From positions 1 to 42,450 of the forward strand of contig DASQNC010000010.1 of NCBI GenBank assembly GCA_035645145.1: a stretch of DNA of 42,450 nucleotides. The letters run 5' to 3'. The notes under the pieces are model-generated. The model made no database searches. It saw only the letters and a list, made by a program, of their open reading frames with translations, and was not told the DNA's origin. The DNA is from Azospirillaceae bacterium (GTDB lineage Bacteria; Pseudomonadota; Alphaproteobacteria; Azospirillales; Azospirillaceae). Shown in pieces: positions 13,116 to 24,168 of this stretch (the stretch's first letter is position 1; each line of letters begins with the position of its first letter). Position numbers and translations under genes: made by a program.

Positions 13116-14165
13116 ATGAACTTCGCAAGCGACAACGTGGCGGGCGCCGCGCCGGAGATCCTGGCGGCCTTGGCGCGCGCGGCCGAGGGGACGGCCTCCT
13201 CGTACGGGGCCGACCCGTACACCGCGCGGCTGGAAGCGGCGCTGGCCGAACTGTTCGAAACGAAGGTGGCCGCATTCCCGGTGGCGACCGGCACGGCCGC
13301 CAATTCCCTGGCGCTCGCCTCGATCTGTCCGCCCTGGGGGGCGGTCTACGCGCACGAGTCCAGCCACGTGATGGTGGACGAGTGCGGTGCGCCCGAGATG
13401 TACACGGCGGGCGCCAAACTGGTCGGCCTGCCCGGTGCCGACGGCAAGATCACCGCCGCGGACCTGGACCGGGCCGCCGGCCGCTGGCCGCGCGGGGCCG
13501 TGCACCATGTGCAGGCCGCGGCCGTGTCGCTGACCCAGGCGACCGAGGCCGGCACCTGTTACCGGCCGGACGAGGTGGCCGTCATCAGCGAGGTGGCGCG
13601 GCACCACGGGATGCGCGTCCACATGGACGGGGCGCGGTTCGCCAATGCGGTGGCGTGGCTCGGCCGGTCGCCGGCCGACGTGACGTGGCGGGCCGGCGTG
13701 GATGTCCTGTCCTTCGGCGCCACCAAGAACGGCGCCCTGGCGGCCGAGGTGGTGGTGTTCTTCAAGCCCGAACTGGCGGCGGAGTTCCAGTTCCGACGCA
13801 AGCGGGCGGGGCACCTGTTCTCGAAGATGCGGTTCCTGTCGGCGCAGTTGGACGCCTATCTGGCGGACGGGCTGTGGCTGCGCCTGGCCCGCCACGCCAA
13901 CCTGATGGCCGCCCGCCTCGCCGAGGGGCTGGCGGCGATCCCCGGCGTGCGTCTGGCCTATCCGGTGGAGGCGAACGAGGTGTTCGCCGAGCTGCCGGAG
14001 CGCATGATCGAAGGGCTGCAGGCCCGCGGGTTCGTGTTCTACCGGTGGGAAGGCCGGGTCGTCCGTCTGGTGACGGCGTTCAACACCGAGGCCGGATCGG
14101 TGGACGCCCTGTTGGACGCCGCCCGCAGCATGGCCCCCAACGACGACGGGCGTGCCGCCGGATGA
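13116..14165 (+). CDS. ltaE: Low-specificity L-threonine aldolase
   Basis: A 349-residue PLP enzyme that cleaves threonine or allo-threonine to glycine and acetaldehyde and may act on other beta-hydroxy amino acids. It starts NFASDNVAGAAPEILAAL and has the PLP-binding lysine Lys204 in SFGATKNGAL. The Asp in RVHMDGARFANA contacts the PLP ring. The start is ATG 13116, preceded by GGCAGGGG. An upstream in-frame extension overlaps rluD on the other strand and is not family-like. The tRNA-Glu gene follows 61 bases later. Confidence 0.93.
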   Translation: MNFASDNVAGAAPEILAALARAAEGTASSYGADPYTARLEAALAELFETKVAAFPVATGTAANSLALASICPPWGAVYAHESSHVMVDECGAPEMYTAGAKLVGLPGADGKITAADLDRAAGRWPRGAVHHVQAAAVSLTQATEAGTCYRPDEVAVISEVARHHGMRVHMDGARFANAVAWLGRSPADVTWRAGVDVLSFGATKNGALAAEVVVFFKPELAAEFQFRRKRAGHLFSKMRFLSAQLDAYLADGLWLRLARHANLMAARLAEGLAAIPGVRLAYPVEANEVFAELPERMIEGLQARGFVFYRWEGRVVRLVTAFNTEAGSVDALLDAARSMAPNDDGRAAG

Positions 14166-14226
14166 GCCGGTGACGATTGTTCTTGCGGCCGGCGCGGCGA
14201 AACGCTATATCGCCGCTCCGGCCTTC

Positions 14227-14302
14227 GTCCCGTTCGTCTAGAGGCCTAGGACACCGCCCTCTCACGGCGGCGACAGGGGTTCAAATCCCCTACGGGACGC
14301 CA
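14227..14302 (+). tRNA. tRNA-Glu (anticodon CTC)
   Basis: A complete 76-base cloverleaf. Acceptor stem GTCCCGT pairs with ACGGGAC, then discriminator G and an encoded CCA. The anticodon arm is CCGCC, loop CTCTCAC, GGCGG, placing anticodon CTC at 14261-14263. The T arm is AGGGG-TTCAAAT-CCCCT. It reads as functional. Its 3' end faces the region with the SAMHD1-like operon, the usual geometry for islands integrated at tRNA genes. Confidence 0.95.
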
Positions 14303-14778
14303 ACGGTTTCAAGGGGTACAGAGGCCCCCCACCTCGGCAGCCGGACAACTTCCCCAACTGTTCCCCAAAACCGGTCGCGGACACGGGTAGGCGCTGATTG
14401 CGGCCAAGACGCGGCGGCCGGTCAGGGTGATCGCGACCGCACGCCACTGGCAGGATATGCACCGCCTGCTAAGCGAGCCCGACGACGAGGCCACCAAACA
14501 GGCTTACCGGCGATGCTGGAAGGTTGAGGCCGCGATGTCCATCGCCAAGCGGCGCTGGAGCGGGGCTCCGTCGGTGCGCACCGATCCGACCCAGCGCCCA
14601 CACCCCCAGGGGGGTGGGCTACAGCCTCAACTGCCTTGTCCTGCTTGGACAATTCGCCTGAGCTTTCCGACGGGGCACGGCGCGCCAAGTCGGATAAAAC
14701 CCTCCAGGAAATAGGGTTGTGAATGGGGTTTTGCTAATCCATAAAAGGTTGTGCATCTGGTATGGTGTGGGTGGTTCG
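14303..14778. other. 476-bp stretch without a recognisable gene, downstream of tRNA-Glu
   Basis: It holds no convincing gene. An open frame of 96 codons from GTG 14427 has a plausible first half (ARHWQDMHRLLSEPDDEA) but turns into Pro/Gly/Gln-rich noise after about residue 50. It could be a decayed coding fragment. A G/C hairpin (CCCAC..CCCCC / GGGGG..GTGGG) lies at 14597-14618. From about 14690 onward the DNA becomes more AT-rich and contains the likely promoter of the next operon. No second copy of the tRNA 3' end was seen. Confidence 0.5.
14717..14745 (+). promoter_or_regulatory. Candidate sigma-70-type promoter of the HD/YwgA-like operon
   Basis: TTGTGA (14717-14722) and CATAAA (14740-14745) are separated by 17 bases in a locally AT-rich patch. 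They lie about 34 bases before the preferred start of the HD protein. Both hexamers match the vegetative consensus at four of six positions, so this is only a candidate. Confidence 0.35.
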
Positions 14779-16143
14779 ATGGAAAGGCGTGTGCGTGACC
14801 CGGTCCACGGTCTGATTGTGTTCGAAAGTGACAATCGGATCGATCCGTTGGCGTGGTCTCTCATAGACACACCGGAGTTCCAGCGTCTGCGCCGCATCCG
14901 GCAACTCGGGGTGTCTGAGTTCACCTTTCCCGGCGCCGTTCACACCCGCTTTGCCCATTCCATCGGCGTTTTCCACACCGCAAGAATGCTTGTCCGCATC
15001 ATCGAACGGGAGATGAGTCGCCTCGACAAGCCGTACGAACCTGAGAAGGCCGAGGTGGCCCTGATTGCGGCGCTACTGCACGATCTCGGGCACGGACCGT
15101 TCAGCCACACGTTCGAGGGGGTGCAGGAGTCCCGCGGCGTCAAGCGGCGGCACGAGAAATGGACGGCGGACATCATCCGCAACCCCAAGGGACGGATACG
15201 ACCGCTTCTGGAGGCTCACCGGGTCGGATTTGCGGACCAGGTTGCGGCCCTCTTGGAGAAGGAGGATCCGGAGGACATCTACCACGCCGTCGTATCCAGC
15301 TCGTTCGACGCCGACCGGCTGGACTATCTACGCCGCGACAAGCTGATGACCGGCACCGGCGCCGGCGGCCTGGATTTCGACTGGCTGATCGCCAACGTGC
15401 AAGTCGCGGAGATCGAGCTGGACGCGCCGGACGAAAACGGGGGCGGGGCACGCAAAGTGCTGACCTTCTGCCTGATGAAGAAGGCGCTCCCGGCCGCGGA
15501 GCAGTTTCTCCTCGCGCGCTACACTCTTCACCAGCAGGTTTATTTCCACAAGACGACCCGGTGTGTGGAGCACATGATTGGAAAGCTCCTCCGCGCCGTT
15601 GCACGTCTTGCCTGCGGCAAAGCGAGCGAGCGCACGAAGAGCGGCCTCCGGAACGACCATCCGCTGCTCCGATTCTTCGCCAAGGGTGGCGATACCGTCG
15701 AGAACTACCTCGCGTTGGACGATGCACTCATCTTGGGATCGCTTGATGCCCTGGCGCGGGCGGGCGATCCCATCGTTTCCGACATCGCCACGCGCTTGAA
15801 GGAACGGAATCTGTACAAAACCCTCGACATCGCCGAGTTCGGAGAGGATGGGGGGCGACAGCGGGGGGTGCTGCGACGTATCAAGGAGCGGTTTAAGGAT
15901 CAGATGGCGGACGAGACGGTTCTACTCGACGAGAAGGCGGCGATCGGCATCTACGCGGAAATCGGGGGCGACGAGGAGAGGATGCACAAGAAGCTGCACA
16001 TCCTTGACGCTGGCCGGCCCGTTGAGATCAGCCGATTGTCCCGCCTCGTCGAAACGCTCGAACCGAAGAAGCAATTCACGCGACTGTACTTCGCCAATTC
16101 GGCCGAAAGAGACGCCGCCCGCACCCAGGGAAGGACCGCATGA
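14779..16143 (+). CDS. SAMHD1/YwfO-like HD-domain phosphohydrolase (probable dNTPase)
   Basis: A 454-residue HD-superfamily protein. The N-terminus VRDPVHGLIVF..IDTPEFQRLRRIRQLG..FPGAVHTRFAHSIGV matches the pattern of SAMHD1 and bacterial YwfO/EF1143 dNTP triphosphohydrolases. The metal site is His60, His101-Asp102 (LLHDLGHGPFSH) and Asp179 in FDADRLDYLRRD. Known relatives split dNTPs into nucleoside and triphosphate, often as oligomers with allosteric nucleotide sites. I chose ATG 14779 because the motif begins five residues later and a promoter-like sequence overlaps the alternative start at 14719. Its stop overlaps the next gene (ATGA). Composition is less GC-extreme than that of the flanks. 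Substrate and role are inferred. Confidence 0.88.
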   Translation: MERRVRDPVHGLIVFESDNRIDPLAWSLIDTPEFQRLRRIRQLGVSEFTFPGAVHTRFAHSIGVFHTARMLVRIIEREMSRLDKPYEPEKAEVALIAALLHDLGHGPFSHTFEGVQESRGVKRRHEKWTADIIRNPKGRIRPLLEAHRVGFADQVAALLEKEDPEDIYHAVVSSSFDADRLDYLRRDKLMTGTGAGGLDFDWLIANVQVAEIELDAPDENGGGARKVLTFCLMKKALPAAEQFLLARYTLHQQVYFHKTTRCVEHMIGKLLRAVARLACGKASERTKSGLRNDHPLLRFFAKGGDTVENYLALDDALILGSLDALARAGDPIVSDIATRLKERNLYKTLDIAEFGEDGGRQRGVLRRIKERFKDQMADETVLLDEKAAIGIYAEIGGDEERMHKKLHILDAGRPVEISRLSRLVETLEPKKQFTRLYFANSAERDAARTQGRTA

Positions 16144-16664
16144 CCGACACGCCCGAGGACCACGTTGCTGAGATTGTCCGCGCGGCGGGAGGCCGCTTGG
16201 TCAGCCGCATCCGCATGCAGAAGATCGCGTACCTGCTCGACCAGCTCGGCGCCCGAAGTGGGTTCGACTATGCCTATCACCACTATGGTCCCTATTCGCG
16301 GGACCTCGATAGCGCGATCCTTGATGCCACCGAATTCGAGGTGGTGGAGGAAAAGTTTGAGCGTCGTAAATCGGATGGGGCGCGCTACAGCGTCTTCACG
16401 GCCGTCGGTGACTCGAACAGCTATGCGTTCAAGCACCTGAAGGATGAGAGGCTTCGCGAGCTGGTAAGGCGGTGGGCATCGACCAACATCACCGTGCTCG
16501 AACTTGCCGCGACGGCGCACTGGCTTTCCGAGGCCGAGAAGGTCGAGGACTGGGAGACCGAAATACACCGCCGCAAGGGATCGAAGACACAGAACGGTCG
16601 GCTGGAGGAAGCGAAGCGGCTGCTCGCCGAGGTTGGATTGCCGCCGGCGACCGCGGTCGCGTGA
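16140..16664 (+). CDS. YwgA/Panacea (DUF4065-like) family protein paired with the HD phosphohydrolase
   Basis: A 174-residue soluble protein. Residues 20-55 (RLVSRIRMQKIAYLLDQLG, then HHYGPYSRDL) follow the pattern of YwgA and of the Panacea/SocA antitoxin-like fold: a first helix with a K-I/L-x-YLL core, then a YGPYS turn. The rest is helical and charged. It overlaps the HD gene by four bases, so the two are coupled. As I recall, ywgA and ywfO (an HD dNTPase) are also neighbours in Bacillus subtilis. Panacea-type proteins neutralise diverse toxins; a regulator or antitoxin role here is inference. Confidence 0.75.
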   Translation: MTDTPEDHVAEIVRAAGGRLVSRIRMQKIAYLLDQLGARSGFDYAYHHYGPYSRDLDSAILDATEFEVVEEKFERRKSDGARYSVFTAVGDSNSYAFKHLKDERLRELVRRWASTNITVLELAATAHWLSEAEKVEDWETEIHRRKGSKTQNGRLEEAKRLLAEVGLPPATAVA

Positions 16665-16668
16665 GAGG

Positions 16669-16689
16669 GGAGGGTGTTAACCCTCCTTT
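16669..16689 (+). terminator. Hairpin terminator of the HD/YwgA-like operon
   Basis: GGAGGGT, loop GTTA, ACCCTCC, then TTT, starting five bases after the YwgA-like stop. The stem is seven perfect pairs. It separates this operon from the convergent nfrA end. Confidence 0.6.
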
Positions 16690-16779: not shown

Positions 16780-18480
16780 TCAGAACGACACGTGGACTTG
16801 CAAAACGATCCCCCCGGCGCGGTCCGACGCGGTCACCGGCACGCGGTAGCCGAAATCGACCTGCACATAGCTGGCCGGCGCGCGGTGGGCGGTTTCGCGG
16901 AACCAGTAGCGCAGGGACAGGCCGGGCCCGATGCCGGCGGCAAAGGGCATGGGTTCCGCCTGATCGTAGGAAAGCCCGGCACCCAGGTACGCCGACCCCG
17001 TGAGCGTTTGCGAGCCGAACAGCTTGGTTGTCAGGCCGTACCGCGCTTCGGCCGAGAACAGCGCCCGCTCCTGTTGCAGGTAATAGCCGGCCTCGGCGTA
17101 GTGCTGTTCGAACGTCCAGGTCTGTTCGACGGGGTTCAGGTCGAGGCCGAAGCCGCCCGAATAGCCCGCCCGGACCAGCCAATCGCTGGTGGCCGCGTCG
17201 CCGAAGGCGATGTGGCGCTCGGCGGCCAGCACGAGGTTGAGGTCGGCCAACGGCTTGTACCGAACGCCGACCGCGCCCAGCAGGGAGTCCGTCCCCGGTG
17301 CGGGGCTGCCGGCGCCGGGCGCGTCGTTGGACAGGCGGGCATAGGCCTGGAACACCCGCCCGTCCTGGAAGCCGAACCATTCCGGCTGCCAGTACCCTTC
17401 CAGGATGAGCTGGGCCGCCGTGCCGCCCCCGGCGTCGCTCCGGCCCGTGCGCCAGGCGTAGCCGCCGGTCAGGCCGAATTCCCGCACCAGCGTATCCACC
17501 TCGCGGCGCAGGCCGAATTCCGCCATCGGGTCCAGAACGGCCGATCCGGCGCCGCGGTAGCCGTCCAATGCGGCGGTGAACCGTCCGGCGGCCTCGCGGT
17601 TGCGGTGAAGCCGCTTGGTGGCATAACCCAGGTCGGCCTGCACCCCCGGCGTCAGGCTGCCCGCACAGCCCGGCGCGTCCGCCATGGCGATGGCACCCGC
17701 GTCGTCGTTCGCCCGCATCAGAAGGTAGATCAGGTCCGGATCGCACCCGGCGGTGCCGTCCGCAAGGGTCCGGACAAGGCCCCGGACCCGGTCCTGGTCC
17801 CCCAGCGCCGCGGCCGACTGCGCCCAGCCCTTGTCGGCCGTCCGCCGGTCCTCGGGCGTTGCCGCCGCGGCCGACGCGGCCTCGAAGGCCGCCGCCGCGT
17901 CCGCGTACCGTTCCAGCGCGAACAGGGCGAAGCCGCGCCGGGCGTTCACCGCATAGCCGGTGTCGCCCGCATACGGGTCCAGCGCATCGAGCACCTCGGC
18001 CGGCCGGCCCGCGGCCAGCGCCTGATCCGCCAGCGACAACCGCAGTTCGCGCACCCGTTCCGCCGCAAGGCCGGGCGTCGCCAGCGCCGTCCGGAAATCC
18101 TCCATCGCCGCTTCGGGACGACCCGCCGCCGCCCGCAGGTAACCGCGCTGCGCATGAAGGCCGGAGTCCTGGACGCCACGCGCGATGGCCTGGTCGGCGA
18201 TCTCCATCGCCGCCGGTCCGTTTCCGGCCCGCGCGAGCACGTCCACCAGCAGGCGGACCGCGTTCGGGTTCTCCGGCGCCCGTTCGACCGCGGCCCGCGC
18301 CTCGCGCTCCGCCGCCACTAGATCCTGGCGGTTCAAGGCCGCATAGGCCTGCGCCGCATGCTCGTAGGCGCGGCCCGATAAGGGGTGGGCGTCCTGCGCC
18401 ATCGCCACCCCCGCGGGGAGGCCGCAGAAACCCAGGGCTCCGGCCGCCGCCAGGAGCGCCAGTCGATTGCGTAGGGCCAT
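16780..18480 (-). CDS. nfrA: NfrA-like TPR and outer-membrane beta-barrel glycan exporter
   Basis: A 566-residue envelope protein with a signal peptide (LLAAAGALGFCGLPAGVAMAQ). About 280 residues of TPR-like helices follow (AYAALNRQDLVAAEREARAAVERAPENPNAVRLL, GYLRAAAGRPEAAMEDFRTAL). The C-terminal 250 residues are beta-strand-rich with alternating aromatics and end in Phe (VQVHVSF), as outer-membrane barrels do. In E. coli, NfrA is the outer-membrane part of the N4 glycan receptor system and a phage N4 adsorption protein. It is shorter than E. coli NfrA. It begins one base after the nfrB stop and is the last gene of the operon. Confidence 0.8.
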   Translation of the reverse strand: MALRNRLALLAAAGALGFCGLPAGVAMAQDAHPLSGRAYEHAAQAYAALNRQDLVAAEREARAAVERAPENPNAVRLLVDVLARAGNGPAAMEIADQAIARGVQDSGLHAQRGYLRAAAGRPEAAMEDFRTALATPGLAAERVRELRLSLADQALAAGRPAEVLDALDPYAGDTGYAVNARRGFALFALERYADAAAAFEAASAAAATPEDRRTADKGWAQSAAALGDQDRVRGLVRTLADGTAGCDPDLIYLLMRANDDAGAIAMADAPGCAGSLTPGVQADLGYATKRLHRNREAAGRFTAALDGYRGAGSAVLDPMAEFGLRREVDTLVREFGLTGGYAWRTGRSDAGGGTAAQLILEGYWQPEWFGFQDGRVFQAYARLSNDAPGAGSPAPGTDSLLGAVGVRYKPLADLNLVLAAERHIAFGDAATSDWLVRAGYSGGFGLDLNPVEQTWTFEQHYAEAGYYLQQERALFSAEARYGLTTKLFGSQTLTGSAYLGAGLSYDQAEPMPFAAGIGPGLSLRYWFRETAHRAPASYVQVDFGYRVPVTASDRAGGIVLQVHVSF

Positions 18481-18481
18481 G

Positions 18482-20605
18482 TCAGGCGTTCCTTTGAACC
18501 GTCTGCTGAGCCATCTGGGCGGCGGCCGGGCTTCGCCGCGCGAGGGCGTCTTCGAGCTGCGTGCGGGTGATAAGGCCTTTTGCGACGAGATGGTCGCCAA
18601 ATCGGCGGCCGGGGCCGGGGGTGTAGTCGCGCAGGGCCTCGGTGATGTCCTGGCGGCGCAGGATCCCCGCATCGACGAGGCTTTCGCCCAGCAGCGGCCC
18701 GTGCGGCCGTTCCTCCGCCGCCGTGCCGCCGACCAGCCGGCGCAAGCCCTCGGCGATCTCGCTGCGGGTGGCGACCCGCACGACGACCGGCCCATTCCAG
18801 TGGGTGGCGATCTCCGCCAGGGCGTCGGGCGGCAGCGTCCCGGCCGCCAGCACCCGGAGCGTGCCGCCGTCGGTGCCGGCGGGAAGCACCTGGTGCCGGA
18901 CCGCCAGGGGCAGGGGCAGGGCGTCCCGGTGGGCGGCAAGCGCGTCGCGGTCCAGGTCCGCCCGCTCCAGCCCGTTCTGATAGGCCAGCGCGTCCGCCAG
19001 CGTGTCTTCGGACACCCAGCCTTCCCGCAGCAGGATGTTGCCCAGCAGGTCGCCGGACCCCGTCTGCCGGGCGATGGCGTCCTCGATCTGGCGGGCGTCC
19101 ACCGCCTTCCAGGCGATCAGCAGGTCGCCCAGCTTGCGGCGGGTTTCCTTGAGCTGGTCGGTCGAGGGAAAGGCGTGGTCCGTCTTGTCCCACGCGATGC
19201 GCTGGCCGAGGATGACGTGGGAGACGAACAGCCGCCACGCCCGCATGGTGGCGAAGAAGTTGATCAGGTTGTTGACCACCATGCGCGGCAGCGACATCAG
19301 CCCCTGCGCCACGCCGTAGACCGAGGACACGAAATAGAACCGCTGGCCGATGCGGTTGCAGAGCATGACGAAGTTGATCGCCATGATCTCCTGCATCCAG
19401 TCGTGCGAGGCGATCAGGCTGGCGAACAGGACGCTGCCGGTCCACCACTTGACCGCGAACGCGGCCAGGAAGTTCAGGACCAGCAGATAGGCGACGATCG
19501 TGACGACCGAGGTGATGACGCCCTTGCGGTCGCGGAGCAGGATGTAGCGCGTCCGCCAGTTCCCCCGCCACGCCATCTCCAGCCAGCCCTGGAACACGAT
19601 GCCCAGGATCCAGCGGGCGCGCTGGCGGTAGGCGGCCCGGAAGGTGTCCGGGAAGTATTCCCGGACGGCCACCACGCTCTCCATCTCGATCTCGCGCACC
19701 CGTCCGGTCAGGAGGCTCCGGCGCGTCACCGTGTAGCCGACCGGAAACCGCACGAAGACCTGCCGCATGCCCAGCTTCGCGAGCCGGTAGCTGAAATCGT
19801 AGTCCTCGGTCAGGCTTTCCGTGTTGAAGGGCTGGTTGGCGGTCTCCTGCGACAGGGCCCGCATGGCGCGGTGGCTGAAGCAGGTGCCGACGCCGGCCGA
19901 CGGCACCTCGCCGAGCAGGCTTTCGCGCACCACCAGATCCTTGCTGTGCCACTCGGCGAAGTCGTCGAGATAGGTCCCGCCGACCAGTTGCCGGAGCGGC
20001 CGGTCCAGCGACAGGACCGGAAGCTGGATCAGGTCCTTGCGCGGCAGCAGGTAGTTGAAAAGCTTGAGTTCCAGGGGGTGGATGACGTCCTCGCTGTCGT
20101 GCAGGACGACACCCGCGAACGTGATCCCCTGCGTCTGCTCGGTCAGGAAAATGGCCTGGATGATCCAGTTCAGGCAGTCGGCCTTGCAGGTGGGGCCGTC
20201 GTGCGGCACCCGGACATGCACGACCTGCCGGTACCGGCGCGCCATGCGGTCGACGATCTCGCCCGTCGCCGGATCGTTGGGATAGGTGCCGCAGAAGATC
20301 CGGAAGTTGGAGTATTCGAGCGTCGCGACCGTGTTTTCGATCATCTGCCCGATGACCGCATCCTCGCGCCAGGCCGGCACCATGATCGCGATCGGCTGCT
20401 CGGGCTTGGCGACCAGGGCGGAGATCGGCAGGGGCTTGTGGCGCAAGGCGTGCAGGTACACGAACCGGTACGCCTGCCGCACCCAGTAGTAGGCGTCGAT
20501 GAAGGCGTCGTCGAGGCTGCTGACCAGGATGATGATCGAGCAGACGAGCGTTGCCCACTCCAGGGCGTGGACATAGTTGGCGAGAAGAAGGGACTGCTCG
20601 ACCAT
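18482..20605 (-). CDS. nfrB: NfrB-like membrane glycosyltransferase with c-di-GMP-binding MshEN modules
   Basis: A 707-residue inner-membrane family 2 glycosyltransferase. An N-terminal helix (residues 14-30) precedes the GT domain, with the metal-binding pattern DSED (170-173), TED (266-268) and QRARW (328-332). Membrane helices follow at about 363-388 and 400-460. The cytoplasmic tail has MshEN-type motifs at 490-514 and 519-543 (KLGDLL...IEDAIARQ, LLGNIL...LADALAYQ), then a GspE-N-like segment (about 550-625). A second motif pair lies at about 636-660 and 667-691. MshEN motifs bind c-di-GMP, and E. coli NfrB is a c-di-GMP-activated enzyme making a ManNAc polymer. It lies four bases after the bcsB-like gene. 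Confidence 0.88.
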   Translation of the reverse strand: MVEQSLLLANYVHALEWATLVCSIIILVSSLDDAFIDAYYWVRQAYRFVYLHALRHKPLPISALVAKPEQPIAIMVPAWREDAVIGQMIENTVATLEYSNFRIFCGTYPNDPATGEIVDRMARRYRQVVHVRVPHDGPTCKADCLNWIIQAIFLTEQTQGITFAGVVLHDSEDVIHPLELKLFNYLLPRKDLIQLPVLSLDRPLRQLVGGTYLDDFAEWHSKDLVVRESLLGEVPSAGVGTCFSHRAMRALSQETANQPFNTESLTEDYDFSYRLAKLGMRQVFVRFPVGYTVTRRSLLTGRVREIEMESVVAVREYFPDTFRAAYRQRARWILGIVFQGWLEMAWRGNWRTRYILLRDRKGVITSVVTIVAYLLVLNFLAAFAVKWWTGSVLFASLIASHDWMQEIMAINFVMLCNRIGQRFYFVSSVYGVAQGLMSLPRMVVNNLINFFATMRAWRLFVSHVILGQRIAWDKTDHAFPSTDQLKETRRKLGDLLIAWKAVDARQIEDAIARQTGSGDLLGNILLREGWVSEDTLADALAYQNGLERADLDRDALAAHRDALPLPLAVRHQVLPAGTDGGTLRVLAAGTLPPDALAEIATHWNGPVVVRVATRSEIAEGLRRLVGGTAAEERPHGPLLGESLVDAGILRRQDITEALRDYTPGPGRRFGDHLVAKGLITRTQLEDALARRSPAAAQMAQQTVQRNA

Positions 20606-20609
20606 CCGC

Positions 20610-23003
20610 TCAGGCCTTGGCCTGCGCCTTTCCGCGGTTGCGCTTGCGGGCCGTCACGATGGCGCGGACGATCCGCATCAGGACGAGCGCGGACAGCACG
20701 CCGAAGCCCGCGATCAGGTGGGTGCGGTAGCGGTAGATCAGCGCCGCCGGCTCGTACATCGCCCGGTCGATGGCGTCCGCCCGGCGTTCCGCGGCGCCAA
20801 GCTCGGCGATGACGCCCGTGGCGTCGATGACGGCCACGTCGCCATGGGCGAGCTGGTCCACCCTCACCACGGGCAGGCGTGCGCCGGGACGCGTGTCCAC
20901 CAGGACGCCGGGCACGCCGTCGATCTCGCCGATCCGGGCCACCGCGACGTCGCCCGCACCGGACAGGTCGACCAGCGTCTGGCGCGTCTCGCCGGCCAGG
21001 ACCAGCCGGTCCTGCTGGATCTCCACGCCGGCCCGCACGCCGGGCAGGGCGCTGCCGAAGGCCACGAAGGCCATGTCCGGCTTGGCGGGGCGCGCCTCGT
21101 CGACGACCGCAAGGCGCAGCGAGGACGAGGTGAAGCTCAACGCCCGCAGCAGCGCCGTCGTGAAGGGCAGGGCTTCGAGCGGCCGTTCCAGATAGTCGGG
21201 CGGAATGTAGGCGATGCCGGTGTGGGCGAAGCGCGGCAGCAGGCCGAAGAACTGCCCGTCGAGCGACGCCCGGCTCAGCGACAGGCGGCTGGTGGGCAGA
21301 ACCTGCGCGAGATAGCCGCGCGGGACGGACCGGCAGTCGCCGGCGAGCGCCCCCCGCTGCAAGGCGATCTTCAGCGTGTTGTTCGCACCCAGCAGGAACG
21401 GCGGGATGTCGGCCGTCATCCGGAAGACCGAGGACTCCGCATCGACCTTCTGGGCGCGCAGGAGCGTGTCGTTCAGCATCACCGACGCGATCGGCGATCC
21501 GTCCGCCGTGTCCGGCGAGACCCGCATCTCAAGCTCGACCGCGTTCGGCCATCGGCCGGGCGGAAGCTGCGAGGCGTTGAACGAAACCGCCCATTCGCCG
21601 TAGTCGGAGATCGCCTGGGCCGCGAAGCCGCCCGACAGCCGCGCGAGCGGCAGGTCGTCGGCGGTGCGTCCGCCCTCGACCGCCTGCCGGACGGTCAGGG
21701 ATCCCGACCCGGCAAGCCGGTGCCAGCGGCCGCCGAGCAGGGTGGCGGAAACCGGAGCCGCGTCGGTGTCCAGCCGGATCAGGGGAAAACCAAGGAGCTG
21801 CGCGAGCGACAGGTTCGCTTCGTCGTTCCCGTCCGCCTTGCGCTGCGCCACGCCGAGCCAGCGGTCGAAGGACGCCAGCACGGCGGGAGCGCCGGACCCC
21901 AGTTCGGCCTCCAGTTCGGCCCGCAGCGCCTGGAGGTCCCGCTCCACGGTTTCCAGGACGCCCGCGGCACCCACGGCGATGTCGCCCAGGGCGTGCCCCG
22001 ACAGTGCCAGCAGCACCAGATAGGCGCCGCGGTCCGCGGCCGTCGCGATCCGCGCCTTGCCGGGGGCGTCCAGGAGTCTGGCGAAGGCGCCGATCCCGGC
22101 CAGGGCCGGATCGACCTGGAGCGGCGCCGTGGGAACGAAGCCGCCGAGGGCCGGGAGCGCCACGAATTCCGGTGTGCGGCCCGATGCGTGGACCGCCAGC
22201 GCGATGCGGACCGCCGCATCGAACCGCGCCGCATCGACGGGGTCCTCGTCCACCAGGATTTTCACCCGATGGGGCAGAACGGCCCACGCGGCGCGCACGC
22301 TGCGGATGTCCCCGGGATCCACCTGGTAGGTCAGCCGCGTGCGGGGATCGACGGACACGACGTTCCCGATCGACCGCTGGTCGGTGCAGCGGTCGCCCGT
22401 GCTGACGGCCGAGAACTTCAGGCCCAGCGTCAGGAAACCTTCCGGACCATCGGGGCCCGGCGCCAGGACGGAGCGGACGAAACGGCCCTCGTGCCCCTCG
22501 AAGTCGATGGTCGTCGCCGGCGTTCCGTTCACGTCGGCGAGAAGGGTGAGCCGCCCGTTCGCGGCCTTCAGGTGCGATCCCGCCAGTTCGATCCGGGCGT
22601 CGCGCAGGGCGACGTCCCGCGGGACCCCGAAGAAGATCTGGCGTTCCGCGTCGGCGCCGCTGAACACCACCGGCCGGCGGAAGCCCAGATCGTCCAGGGA
22701 AACCGAGCGCGCCAGCCTCGGCCGGGACGCCAGCGCGTCGAAGAACCCAACGGCCGGGTGCGGCTCCCGACTTTGCGCCTTGAACCCGGCGGCCTTCGGG
22801 CGCGGCTCCCGACGTTCCGCCGCGGCTGCGGGAGCGGTGGGAGCAACGGGAGCTGCGGGAAGCGGCGCCGCGGGGGCCGCCTCGACGGCCTCGAACGCCG
22901 GCTCATCGGGGGCCGGTTCCTGGGCCGCCGGGTGCCCGGGCGATAAGATCGCCGAAAGGGCCGCGACGGCGCAAAGACGGCGCGGCAGGCCTCCGATCCG
23001 CAT
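20610..23003 (-). CDS. BcsB-like periplasmic glycan-synthase subunit
   Basis: A 797-residue protein with a signal peptide, a Pro/Ala-rich spacer (about residues 28-70) and a large beta-rich periplasmic body resembling cellulose synthase subunit BcsB. Jelly-roll-like blocks include IFFGVPRDVALRDARIELAGSH and VRVSPD-type MRVSPDTADGSPIASVMLNDT. A single C-terminal membrane helix (about 756-776) precedes a basic tail. BcsB normally guides the polymer emerging from BcsA. There is no BcsA here; NfrB is the only synthase in the operon. I infer that this protein performs the BcsB job for NfrB. It begins one base after wecB ends. Confidence 0.78.
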   Translation of the reverse strand: MRIGGLPRRLCAVAALSAILSPGHPAAQEPAPDEPAFEAVEAAPAAPLPAAPVAPTAPAAAAERREPRPKAAGFKAQSREPHPAVGFFDALASRPRLARSVSLDDLGFRRPVVFSGADAERQIFFGVPRDVALRDARIELAGSHLKAANGRLTLLADVNGTPATTIDFEGHEGRFVRSVLAPGPDGPEGFLTLGLKFSAVSTGDRCTDQRSIGNVVSVDPRTRLTYQVDPGDIRSVRAAWAVLPHRVKILVDEDPVDAARFDAAVRIALAVHASGRTPEFVALPALGGFVPTAPLQVDPALAGIGAFARLLDAPGKARIATAADRGAYLVLLALSGHALGDIAVGAAGVLETVERDLQALRAELEAELGSGAPAVLASFDRWLGVAQRKADGNDEANLSLAQLLGFPLIRLDTDAAPVSATLLGGRWHRLAGSGSLTVRQAVEGGRTADDLPLARLSGGFAAQAISDYGEWAVSFNASQLPPGRWPNAVELEMRVSPDTADGSPIASVMLNDTLLRAQKVDAESSVFRMTADIPPFLLGANNTLKIALQRGALAGDCRSVPRGYLAQVLPTSRLSLSRASLDGQFFGLLPRFAHTGIAYIPPDYLERPLEALPFTTALLRALSFTSSSLRLAVVDEARPAKPDMAFVAFGSALPGVRAGVEIQQDRLVLAGETRQTLVDLSGAGDVAVARIGEIDGVPGVLVDTRPGARLPVVRVDQLAHGDVAVIDATGVIAELGAAERRADAIDRAMYEPAALIYRYRTHLIAGFGVLSALVLMRIVRAIVTARKRNRGKAQAKA

Positions 23004-23004
23004 G

Positions 23005-24168
23005 TCAGGCGATCTCCGGCATCTTCGACGGCACCGTCCGTTGGCGGACCAGCGCCGCGACGATCCGCTCCGACGCCCGTCCGTCGCCGAACGGATTTTG
23101 GACGCCCGCCATGCGCCGCCGCCGGTCGGGATCGTTCAGCAGGTCTTCGGCCTCGCGCACGATGCGGCGGGGATCCGTGCCGACCAGGATGGCCGATCCG
23201 GCGTCCAGCGCCTCCGGCCGTTCGGTGACCTCCCGGGTCACCAGCACCGGCACGCCGAGCGTGGGCGCCTCCTCCTGGATGCCGCCGGAATCCGTGATGA
23301 TCAGGTGGGCCCGTTCCATCAGGTGGATCATCCGATGGTAGGGCTGGGGCCCGATCAGGTGCACGTTGGCCAATTCGCCCAGCGCCCGCTCGGCCGGCGC
23401 CGCGACATTGGGGTTGAGATGGACCGGATAGACGATCTGCACGTCCCGGCCCAGCGAAAGGGCGGCCAGGGCGTCGAACACCCGCTCCAACCCCGGACCG
23501 AAGTTCTCGCGCCGATGGCCGGTGACCAGGATCATACGCTTGGCGGGGTCGAGGAACGGGAACGCGCGCTGGCAGTCCGCCCTCAAGGCCCTGTCCCGGC
23601 CGAGGCGCCGGCGCATGTCCAGAAGGGTGTCGATGCCGGTGTTGCCGGTCACCGTGACGGTCGCCGGGTCCACCCCCTCGGCCAGAAGGTTCGCGGCGGC
23701 CTGCCGGGTCGGTGCGAAATGCCAGGACGCAATGGGTGCGATCATCCGGCGGTTGCCTTCCTCGGGCCAGGGGGCCTTCAGATTTCCGGTCCGCAGGCCC
23801 GCCTCGACATGGGCGACCGGGACGCCGCGGAGATGGGCGGCCATCGCGCCCCCCAGCGCCGAGGACGTGTCGCCCTGGACGATGACGAGGTCTGCGGGGA
23901 AATCGGCCAGAACGTCCCCGACGCCGGAAATGATGGCGGCCGCCCCATGGGGCAGGCTCCGGACACTGGCGGAAACATTCAGATCGAAGCGCGGCCGGAT
24001 GCGGAAAAGCTCGAGCGCCTGCTCCAGCATTTCCTTTTGCTGGCCCGTCGAGCACACGGCGTGGATCACGTCCTTCCGCTGCTCAAGTAAGGCGACCAGC
24101 GGGGCCAGCTTGATCGCTTCGGGGCGCGTCCCCAGGACGGTCAGGATGCGGATGGAGCGGCCGATCAT
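23005..24168 (-). CDS. wecB: UDP-N-acetylglucosamine 2-epimerase (non-hydrolysing)
   Basis: A 387-residue cytosolic enzyme interconverting UDP-GlcNAc and UDP-ManNAc. It has the N-terminal TVLGTRPEAIKLAPL, VQGDTSS with Asp100, HVEAGLRTGN with Glu122, TGHRRENFG and TDSGGIQEEAPTLGVPVLVTR motifs, all diagnostic. As the first gene of the wecB/bcsB-like/nfrB/nfrA operon it would supply UDP-ManNAc to NfrB. In E. coli the N4 glycan receptor pathway also depends on WecB, encoded elsewhere; here the epimerase is part of the locus. Confidence 0.95.
   Translation of the reverse strand: MIGRSIRILTVLGTRPEAIKLAPLVALLEQRKDVIHAVCSTGQQKEMLEQALELFRIRPRFDLNVSASVRSLPHGAAAIISGVGDVLADFPADLVIVQGDTSSALGGAMAAHLRGVPVAHVEAGLRTGNLKAPWPEEGNRRMIAPIASWHFAPTRQAAANLLAEGVDPATVTVTGNTGIDTLLDMRRRLGRDRALRADCQRAFPFLDPAKRMILVTGHRRENFGPGLERVFDALAALSLGRDVQIVYPVHLNPNVAAPAERALGELANVHLIGPQPYHRMIHLMERAHLIITDSGGIQEEAPTLGVPVLVTREVTERPEALDAGSAILVGTDPRRIVREAEDLLNDPDRRRRMAGVQNPFGDGRASERIVAALVRQRTVPSKMPEIA

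What the first reader, a model, noticed from the sequence alone, without database searches (positions are those of the whole stretch)
14717..16689. SAMHD1-like dNTPase paired with a YwgA/Panacea-like protein beside tRNA-Glu: candidate defence or toxin-antitoxin module
Seen: two genes overlapping by ATGA, with their own promoter-like sequence and hairpin, placed just downstream of tRNA-Glu(CTC) and less GC-rich than the flanks. The first has a complete HD metal site (His60, His101-Asp102, Asp179) in SAMHD1-type context; the second has the HHYGPYS turn of YwgA/Panacea-like proteins. Known: dNTP-hydrolysing HD proteins restrict viruses (SAMHD1) and some bacterial dGTPases act in phage defence; Panacea domains are versatile antitoxins; ywfO and ywgA are neighbours in Bacillus. 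Inference: the partner restrains or gates the dNTPase, which depletes dNTPs on infection. I know of no described function for this exact pairing.
Basis: partly seen in the sequence, partly recalled or inferred. Interest (0 to 1): 0.78.

Follow-up and report, generated by a model that had tools for sequence, protein, structure and literature searches.

The report
dNTP-destroying enzyme with DarG-like antitoxin
Two overlapping bacterial genes encode an enzyme that probably destroys DNA building blocks and a small partner that resembles the inhibitor half of a known anti-phage toxin-antitoxin system; they stay together across distant bacteria, so they are a promising but untested virus-defence or self-restraint switch.

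Summary
The genes are real: an EF1143/SAMHD1-type HD dNTPase (14779-16143) overlapping by ATGA a YwgA-family protein (16140-16664). The pairing is conserved: of 80 species-level loci found through the small gene, 77 have HD directly upstream on the same strand, 2 are cut there by contig ends, and 1 appears to lack it. The proteins diverge together (r 0.93, 76 pairs).

"Panacea" is not supported. The small protein is homologous to the C-terminal domain of antitoxin DarG: hhalign 98%, E 5e-14; the only PDB fold matches below E 0.001 are DarG chains of the DarT:DarG complex (Z 12.2, next 6.3).

In 10 loci an HNH gene follows YwgA; 7 show a restriction-modification-type operon, SNF2 helicase-methyltransferase-[HD-YwgA]-HNH. 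That slot is empty in one relative and holds LmuB-like ATPase plus GmrSD in another. Two viral contigs carry YwgA without HD.

Best reading: a dNTPase effector held by a DarG-type antitoxin, used as portable defence cargo. Toxicity, inhibition and phage restriction are untested; the main rival is ordinary dNTP-pool regulation.

The parts
14779..16143 (+). HD-domain dNTPase gene, 454 aa (EF1143/SAMHD1 type), intact metal site and HE dyad
   Evidence: (start); homologue fold
16140..16664 (+). YwgA-family protein, 174 aa, homologous to the C-terminal (DarT-binding) domain of antitoxin DarG
16140..16143 (+). ATGA overlap of the HD stop and the YwgA start (translational coupling inferred)
   Evidence: the same -4 overlap in 24 of 63 non-Bacillus loci with HD, first-start rule
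14769..16648 (+). stretch of DNA homology shared with other bacteria; its ends lie at the two genes, so the pair alone is the shared unit
   Evidence: 14 loci compared
16669..16686 (+). 7-bp-stem hairpin after the second gene, possible weak terminator
   Evidence: read; not scored as a terminator
14227..14302 (+). tRNA-Glu(CTC) of the family's ltaE-tRNA junction; blastn homology to relatives ends within 12 bp of its 3' end

Best explanation
A two-gene effector/inhibitor module. The first protein is a SAMHD1/EF1143-type dNTP triphosphohydrolase that can empty the cell's dNTP pool. The second is a stand-alone DarG-C-terminal-domain-type antitoxin (YwgA family) that binds the dNTPase and keeps it off in healthy cells. 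When phage replication disturbs the balance (by titrating the inhibitor or raising dNTPs), the dNTPase is released and DNA synthesis stops. The pair travels as portable cargo, alone (as here) or inside restriction-modification operons, where it would act as a second line. Shown by computation: the families, intact catalytic residues, near-obligate order and linkage seen from the small gene, co-divergence, homology and fold match to DarG-CTD, an R-M slot with alternative cargo, YwgA-only viral contigs. Inferred: dNTP hydrolysis by this protein, direct inhibition, the trigger, phage restriction.
For: HD identity: E. faecalis HD dNTPase E 1e-47 over residues 2-372; homologue model Z 38.8 to it and about 34 to SAMHD1; catalytic residues kept across 78 rows except truncated rows and L028. 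Partner identity: PADLOC DarG 1e-12; NCBIfam DarG 3e-10 over profile 184-312 of 338, below the family cut-off; hhalign 98.2%, E 5e-14 over 140 columns with six DarG proteins; PDB fold 7yk3. The six DarG loci (L006-L011): macrodomain in 5 of 5 DarG proteins scanned and DarT (PF14487) in 5 of 5 neighbours scanned; the sixth neighbour (L009) is DarT-like by eye. So the fused form sits with DarT and the stand-alone form with HD. Linkage 77 of 80; distance correlation 0.926 (76 pairs) and 0.894 (61 non-Bacillus), best of 1000 permutations 0.126 and 0.11. Patchy spread: strong hits in 5 of 385 class genomes, HD absent from the one same-genus genome searched, HD tree mixes phyla (several rows are MAGs). 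Defence context; alternative cargo. Three loci with HD broken but YwgA intact: L139 (truncated), L037 (two frames), L028 (in-frame stop and Gln for the dyad Glu), as expected if the partner is protective. YwgA without HD in two viral records.
Against: No functional data. The window has no defence or mobility gene recognised among the flanking genes scanned (six scanned). Neighbours of the other pairs are mixed, many of them metabolic genes, and the PADLOC comparison near against far was not decisive. From the HD side, 6 of 14 class genomes with an HD match at E 1e-30 lack a recognised YwgA downstream, so the enzyme family does not always need this partner; L080 has YwgA with no HD recognised in the 349 bp upstream. 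The Bacillus-type pair (14 of the 80 loci) looks chromosomal; ywgA is, as far as I recall, dispensable in B. subtilis, which argues against a strong toxin there; and a YwfO-like protein is kept in the minimal cell Syn3.0 (PMC4993169, passage), which fits housekeeping. The co-divergence shows only that partners are inherited together, as any tightly linked pair would be. The fused-pair model does not establish docking (pTM 0.77). The broken-HD cases are three and were found through YwgA or in draft contigs, so the asymmetry is biased by the search.
Confidence: 0.5

Rival explanations
1. Housekeeping dNTP-pool regulator: YwgA is a regulatory or activating subunit that tunes a dNTPase for replication fidelity or cell-cycle control; any effect on phages is incidental.
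For: Bacillus-type pairs (L082-L095) and Priestia with ordinary neighbours; metabolic families among nearest neighbours of proteobacterial pairs; a YwfO-like protein kept in Syn3.0 and proposed there as a promiscuous pyrophosphohydrolase (PMC4993169, passages); ywfO listed among genes co-evolving with polC (PMC3814617, passage); Caulobacter FssC, a bacterial dNTPase, controls the cell cycle and did not change CbK susceptibility (PMC12186491, passages).
Against: Patchy distribution, low GC and GC3, restriction-operon slot, viral YwgA-only copies and homology to a known antitoxin domain do not fit a pure housekeeping role in proteobacteria.
Confidence: 0.3
2. Two-part effector: the winged-helix-like partner binds nucleic acid (or phage DNA) and directs or activates the HD enzyme at replication forks; both are needed for activity.
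For: N-terminal half of the partner resembles winged-helix regulators (Z 4.7-6.3); SAMHD1 has solved complexes with ssDNA and ssRNA (entry titles).
Against: Winged-helix matches are middling and far below the DarG-CTD match (Z 12.2); that domain is a reported protein inhibitor acting by ssDNA mimicry (title cited).
Confidence: 0.12
3. Selfish addiction pair or neutral remnant: the genes persist by toxin-antitoxin dependence or chance, without a defence benefit; in the window they may be left over from a larger restriction operon.
For: Window HD lies in a supported clade that includes operon-borne pairs; the window has only the pair and its genome has no HNH match at E 1e-25.
Against: Both genes are intact with all catalytic residues; stand-alone pairs occur repeatedly in the same clade (L017, L022, L023); blastn found no operon genes in the window's flanks.
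Confidence: 0.08

Closest known systems
EF1143 (Enterococcus faecalis dNTPase) / YwfO / SAMHD1
   Same: Sequence over most of the protein, metal site, HE dyad and fold. That PDB 2o6i/3irh is EF1143 is recalled.
   Different: No protein partner described in the papers found here; here it is tied to a DarG-CTD-type protein and sometimes embedded in R-M operons.
DarTG toxin-antitoxin system (DarG C-terminal domain)
   Same: Partner is homologous to the DarG C-terminal domain in sequence profile and fold.
   Different: No macrodomain on the partner; the neighbour is an HD dNTPase, not the DNA ADP-ribosyltransferase DarT.
Clover (CloA dGTPase + CloB nucleotidyltransferase)
   Same: Two-gene logic of a dNTPase effector restrained by its neighbour (PMC12265719, abstract and first of eight parts read).
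   Different: CloB is a Pol-beta-type nucleotidyltransferase that makes an inhibitory nucleotide; here the partner is a DarG-CTD-type protein. The HD protein is closer to EF1143 than to Dgt-type enzymes.
Panacea (PF13274) antitoxins
   Same: Small antitoxin-type partners of varied toxins (PMC8832971, passages); faint shared K..Y...GP pattern.
   Different: No Pfam match at E up to 1; hhalign probability 4.4%.
Backup effectors nested in restriction/BREX operons (PARIS, GmrSD)
   Same: Interchangeable cargo inside a restriction operon; the BREX survey describes auxiliary and backup effectors including GmrSD (PMC12839542, passages).
   Different: Cargo here is a dNTPase with an antitoxin-like partner, not a nuclease; a word search of that paper for SAMHD1, dNTP, DarG and two HD terms gave none.

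Membership tests
EF1143/SAMHD1-type dNTPase | HD metal site H..HD..D | tested here: met
   His60, His101, Asp102, Asp179
EF1143/SAMHD1-type dNTPase | HE catalytic dyad at the CloA spacing (HD +9, +12) | tested here: met
   His110, Glu113 in the window; 78 of 78 and 77 of 78 rows; CloA residue numbers
EF1143/SAMHD1-type dNTPase | Similarity over most of the chain and the same fold | tested here: met
   E 1e-47 residues 2-372; Z 38.8 on homologue L043, (window protein itself not folded)
EF1143/SAMHD1-type dNTPase | dNTP hydrolysis and allosteric activation | not testable with these tools
   needs purified protein
DarG antitoxin | C-terminal DarT-binding domain | tested here: met
DarG antitoxin | N-terminal macrodomain (or NADAR) | tested here: not met
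   174 aa, matches only profile 184-312 of 338; no Pfam domain
DarG antitoxin | DarT gene next door | tested here: not met
   HD gene instead
Panacea (SocA_Panacea, PF13274) | Match above the Pfam gathering score | tested here: not met
   no Pfam family at E up to 1; profile comparison 4.4%
Clover | Partner is a Pol-beta nucleotidyltransferase (CloB) | tested here: not met
   partner is DarG-CTD-like
Type II toxin-antitoxin | Two adjacent co-oriented genes, co-inherited | tested here: met
Type II toxin-antitoxin | Toxicity of one protein neutralised by direct binding of the other | not testable with these tools
   fused-pair model inconclusive, pTM 0.77
Anti-phage defence system | Association with defence genes | tested here: inconclusive
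   restriction-type genes in 10 of 80 loci; mixed elsewhere; not in the window
Anti-phage defence system | Reduces phage plating | not testable with these tools
   needs experiment

The most novel reading that the evidence does not exclude
A new toxin-antitoxin-style defence class in which a DarG-C-terminal-domain protein inhibits a SAMHD1-type dNTPase by nucleic-acid mimicry at the site where SAMHD1 itself binds single-stranded DNA or RNA. It is deployed as a backup in restriction operons, and phages carry YwgA-only decoys to keep the enzyme switched off. Bacillus ywfO-ywgA would be the domesticated form.
Probability: 0.2. Interest if true: 0.88.

Novelty: new variant of a known kind. Interest (0 to 1): 0.7.

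Why it matters
It links two well-studied immune chemistries, dNTP depletion (SAMHD1, Clover) and the DarTG toxin-antitoxin system, through one small domain. That suggests the DarG C-terminal domain is a reusable inhibitor fold paired with at least two unrelated nucleotide- or DNA-acting enzymes. It gives an immediate, cheap test of function for a Bacillus gene pair that is hardly discussed in the held literature (five papers hold either name; in the two opened, ywfO is mentioned in passing), and it points to a restriction-operon slot in which further defence cargo can be looked for.

Tried and rejected
Panacea membership: rejected. Clover membership: rejected, because the partner is not a nucleotidyltransferase. 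Dgt-type dGTPase membership: matches cover only a part around residues 29-117 and fall far below the cut-offs (PADLOC). Mobile element at the tRNA: no second copy of the 22-base tRNA 3' end in the window with up to 4 mismatches; tRNA adjacency is not shared by most other pairs. An empty-site comparison was not possible, because NfrB was not found in the 10 relatives searched (E 1e-60), and the tool warned that an empty answer there shows little. Remnants of the restriction operon in the flanks: blastn found only one 40-bp, 80% match (L034, E 0.007). A six-frame tblastn of the flanks gave many weak hits (best 1e-6) scattered over frames and loci, which I put down to GC-rich composition. Defence enrichment of nearest neighbours: inconclusive. 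87 near and 61 far proteins were scanned of 88 and 66 selected (cut or end pieces dropped); the 11 loci named as operon loci had been left out beforehand; and my simple gene caller gave no gene index for 13 of 69 loci. The near set matched 58 PADLOC families at E 1e-15 and the far set 33, many of them redundant models. The first mixed alignment of fused, HD-only and YwgA-only rows was misaligned and dropped. P0002 found nothing in plasmids (E 1e-5) or phages (E 0.01) by tblastn, while P0001 matched 42 plasmid records, of which I opened four. Fold-search rows under Z 8 were not used as relations.

P0002 alone misses divergent copies: a profile found three more next to HD (L157, L158, L160). Several of the 77 HD genes are cut by contig ends or broken (L028, L029, L030, L033, L037, L062, L063). 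The 78 HD rows are the window, 73 genome loci and 4 viral loci with at least 360 aa. The -4 overlap count uses the first start codon.

Literature: searches (10 of 10 used). No paper on an HD-YwgA pair was seen in these listings; each listing shows at most 40 papers, and most papers were not opened. For PMC12265719 I read part 1 of 8 and passages; for PMC11481870, PMC8832971, PMC10440598, PMC12186491, PMC12839542, PMC12458937, PMC4993169, PMC3814617 and PMC12170906 only found passages; the DarG structure paper (Structure 2023) only as a cited title.
Full report
What is there. Two + strand genes overlap by ATGA. The first, 14779-16143, encodes a 454-aa HD protein; the second, 16140-16664, a 174-aa protein. 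A tRNA-Glu(CTC) lies at 14227-14302. The pair is 62.2% GC with GC3 0.78, against 69.7% for the window and GC3 0.93 for two flanking genes. A hairpin follows at 16669-16686 (read), but no promoter-like site was found with a sigma-70 scan, and terminator-like sites were 4 against 2.2 +/- 1.5 in shuffles. Against 14 loci with related pairs, DNA homology covers at most 14769-16649 and nothing else in the window apart from one tRNA match, so ATG 14779 is the likely start and the two genes are the shared unit.

The enzyme. Best solved relative: an Enterococcus faecalis HD phosphohydrolase (2o6i, 3irh, 4lrl), E 1e-47 over residues 2-372, which I take to be EF1143 (recalled), a dNTPase that needs dNTP activation with Mg (PMC12186491, passage). 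Matches to Dgt-type families are partial and far below cut-off. A homologue (L043) folds with Z 38.8 to that protein with dGTP/dATP and about 34 to SAMHD1. Metal ligands and a His/Glu pair spaced as in CloA are kept in nearly all of 78 rows; the gaps are three truncated rows, and L028 has Gln at the Glu position. From memory, Gln35 and Arg38 correspond to SAMHD1 residues that bind the activating guanine nucleotide; both are kept in 75 of 78 rows with 3 gaps, while the Asp30 position varies. The mapping is recalled, not computed.

The partner. No Pfam family at E up to 1. DarG models match most of its length (PADLOC 1e-12; NCBIfam 3e-10 to profile 184-312 of 338, below cut-off). A 60-sequence alignment gives a confident model (pLDDT 93.9, pTM 0.91). 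The only PDB matches at E below 0.001 are the two DarG chains of the DarT:DarG complex 7yk3; the chain listed by the second aligner has Z 12.2 over 158 residues at rmsd 4.2, and the next entry 6.3. Profile comparison with six DarG proteins gives 98.2%, E 5e-14; with Panacea 4.4%; DarG with Panacea 22%. The structure paper cited names ssDNA mimicry by this domain as the way DarT is kept inhibited (title only seen). The partner is therefore a stand-alone relative of the DarG toxin-binding domain. Its name YwgA rests on synteny in Priestia plus recall of B. subtilis gene order; the Priestia protein is about 20% identical to the window's.

Linkage. In 385 class genomes the partner has matches in 11. 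Five, the window included, are strong, and all have HD next door, though in G091 the HD is cut by the contig end. The six weak ones are DarG: proteins of 344-410 aa, with a macrodomain in 5 of 5 scanned and a DarT neighbour in 5 of 5 scanned; the sixth neighbour is DarT-like by eye. A species-level scan gave 80 loci (best 80 of 347). HD is directly upstream on the same strand in 77; L019 and L052 start at the contig end; in L080 nothing like HD is seen in the 349 bp available, so it is a likely exception. Fourteen loci (L082-L095) are Bacillaceae or Fictibacillaceae with gaps of 5-125 bp; of the 63 others with HD, 24 have the -4 overlap and 59 lie between -60 and +8. Co-divergence: r 0.926 for 76 pairs and 0.894 for 61 non-Bacillus pairs; best of 1000 permutations 0.126 and 0.11. 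This shows stable partnership, not contact. From the HD side, 14 of 385 class genomes match at E 1e-30; 8 have YwgA downstream (window included; G091 through its second contig) and 6 do not. So YwgA depends on HD more than HD on YwgA. A tree of 78 HD proteins places the window with Skermanella, Azospirillum, Pseudaminobacter and Nitrobacter pairs (99/94), in wider supported sets with a Verrucomicrobiota MAG and others: horizontal spread, with the caution that several rows are MAGs.

Context. In 10 loci an HNH-endonuclease gene follows YwgA (L016, L018, L019, L020, L021, L027, L028, L036, L039, L043); 8 of them have the methyltransferase upstream and 7 also the SNF2-type helicase (L016, L018, L020, L021, L028, L039, L043); L019, L027 and L036 are cut by contig ends. 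PADLOC and Pfam name these genes DpdE/DrmD-like helicase, DrmMI/Eco57I-like methyltransferase and HNH (seven proteins from L016, L018 and L021 scanned). The same operon occurs with the methyltransferase directly followed by HNH (L146) and with an LmuB-like ATPase plus GmrSD in that place (L145). The pair is therefore one of at least two cargos in a variable slot. Outside these loci the neighbours are mixed: PADLOC hits in 87 near proteins include MADS, Type I methyltransferase and reverse-transcriptase models, but 61 far proteins also give hits, and Pfam shows many metabolic genes. The window copy stands alone beside LtaE and NfrA/NfrB-type genes, and its genome has no HNH match at E 1e-25.

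Signs of conflict. Two IMG/VR contigs carry YwgA with no HD match in the whole record; both may be fragments, so absence is weak. Four other viral records do carry HD. The viral fold library has an archaeal-virus protein with this fold (Sulfolobus ellipsoid virus 1, E 2.9e-4). A phage antitoxin that binds DarT is known (AdfB, PMC11481870, passages), so viral YwgA proteins could be decoys; this is inference. In three loci the HD gene is broken and YwgA intact: truncated in L139, split over two frames in L037, with an early in-frame stop in L028.

How it most likely works. dNTPase effector plus DarG-type inhibitor, released on infection. The closest published logic is Clover, in which the partner makes an inhibitory nucleotide; here a protein inhibitor is proposed. 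A fused-pair model gave pTM 0.77, which does not settle docking. SAMHD1 has solved complexes with ssDNA and ssRNA (titles), so a nucleic-acid-mimicking inhibitor has a natural place to bind; this is the boldest reading. The main rival is dNTP-pool housekeeping, which may hold for Bacillus; a YwfO-like protein is kept in the minimal cell Syn3.0 (PMC4993169, passage).

Verdict. Observation partly confirmed; interpretation partly supported and sharpened: not Panacea but DarG-CTD, with conserved pairing and a restriction-operon link. No paper on the pairing was seen in the searches run. No function has been shown.

Noticed in passing
L145:460-9497, L146:6053-10949, L021:2-9324: A restriction-type operon (SNF2 helicase, DrmMI-type methyltransferase, HNH) has a variable slot between methyltransferase and HNH: empty, LmuB-like ATPase plus GmrSD, or HD-YwgA.
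   Followed up: partly
L012:3634-7425, L013:267-3886, L014:2638-6425: Rhizobium, Roseibium and Sinorhizobium plasmids carry a related HD protein in a shared four-gene row with radical SAM protein, 3'-5' exonuclease and AAA ATPase, without YwgA; in S. meliloti M162 a DncV-like nucleotidyltransferase and a ThiF protein lie just upstream.
   Followed up: partly
L099:4971-5474, L100:4950-5462: Two IMG/VR contigs encode a YwgA-family protein with no HD match in the record; possible counter-defence decoys.
   Followed up: partly
window 16780-24168, - strand: NfrA_C-type protein, NfrB-like glycosyltransferase, BcsB-like protein and UDP-GlcNAc 2-epimerase in a row: resembles phage N4 adsorption / exopolysaccharide export genes; the NfrB-like protein was not found in 10 relatives searched at E 1e-60.
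   Followed up: partly
window 13116-14302: A tRNA gene lies by ltaE in 12 of 18 family loci scanned (11 tRNA-Glu, one called with unclear identity, one of the 12 about 1.3 kb away); blastn homology to the window ends within 12 bp of the tRNA 3' end, so this may be a variable junction.
   Followed up: partly
L049 and L056: Inquilinus limosus DSM 16000 carries two different HD-YwgA pairs.
   Followed up: no
viral fold library hit A0A2H4RBN9: Proteins of Sulfolobus viruses match the YwgA/DarG-CTD fold (best E 2.9e-4).
   Followed up: no
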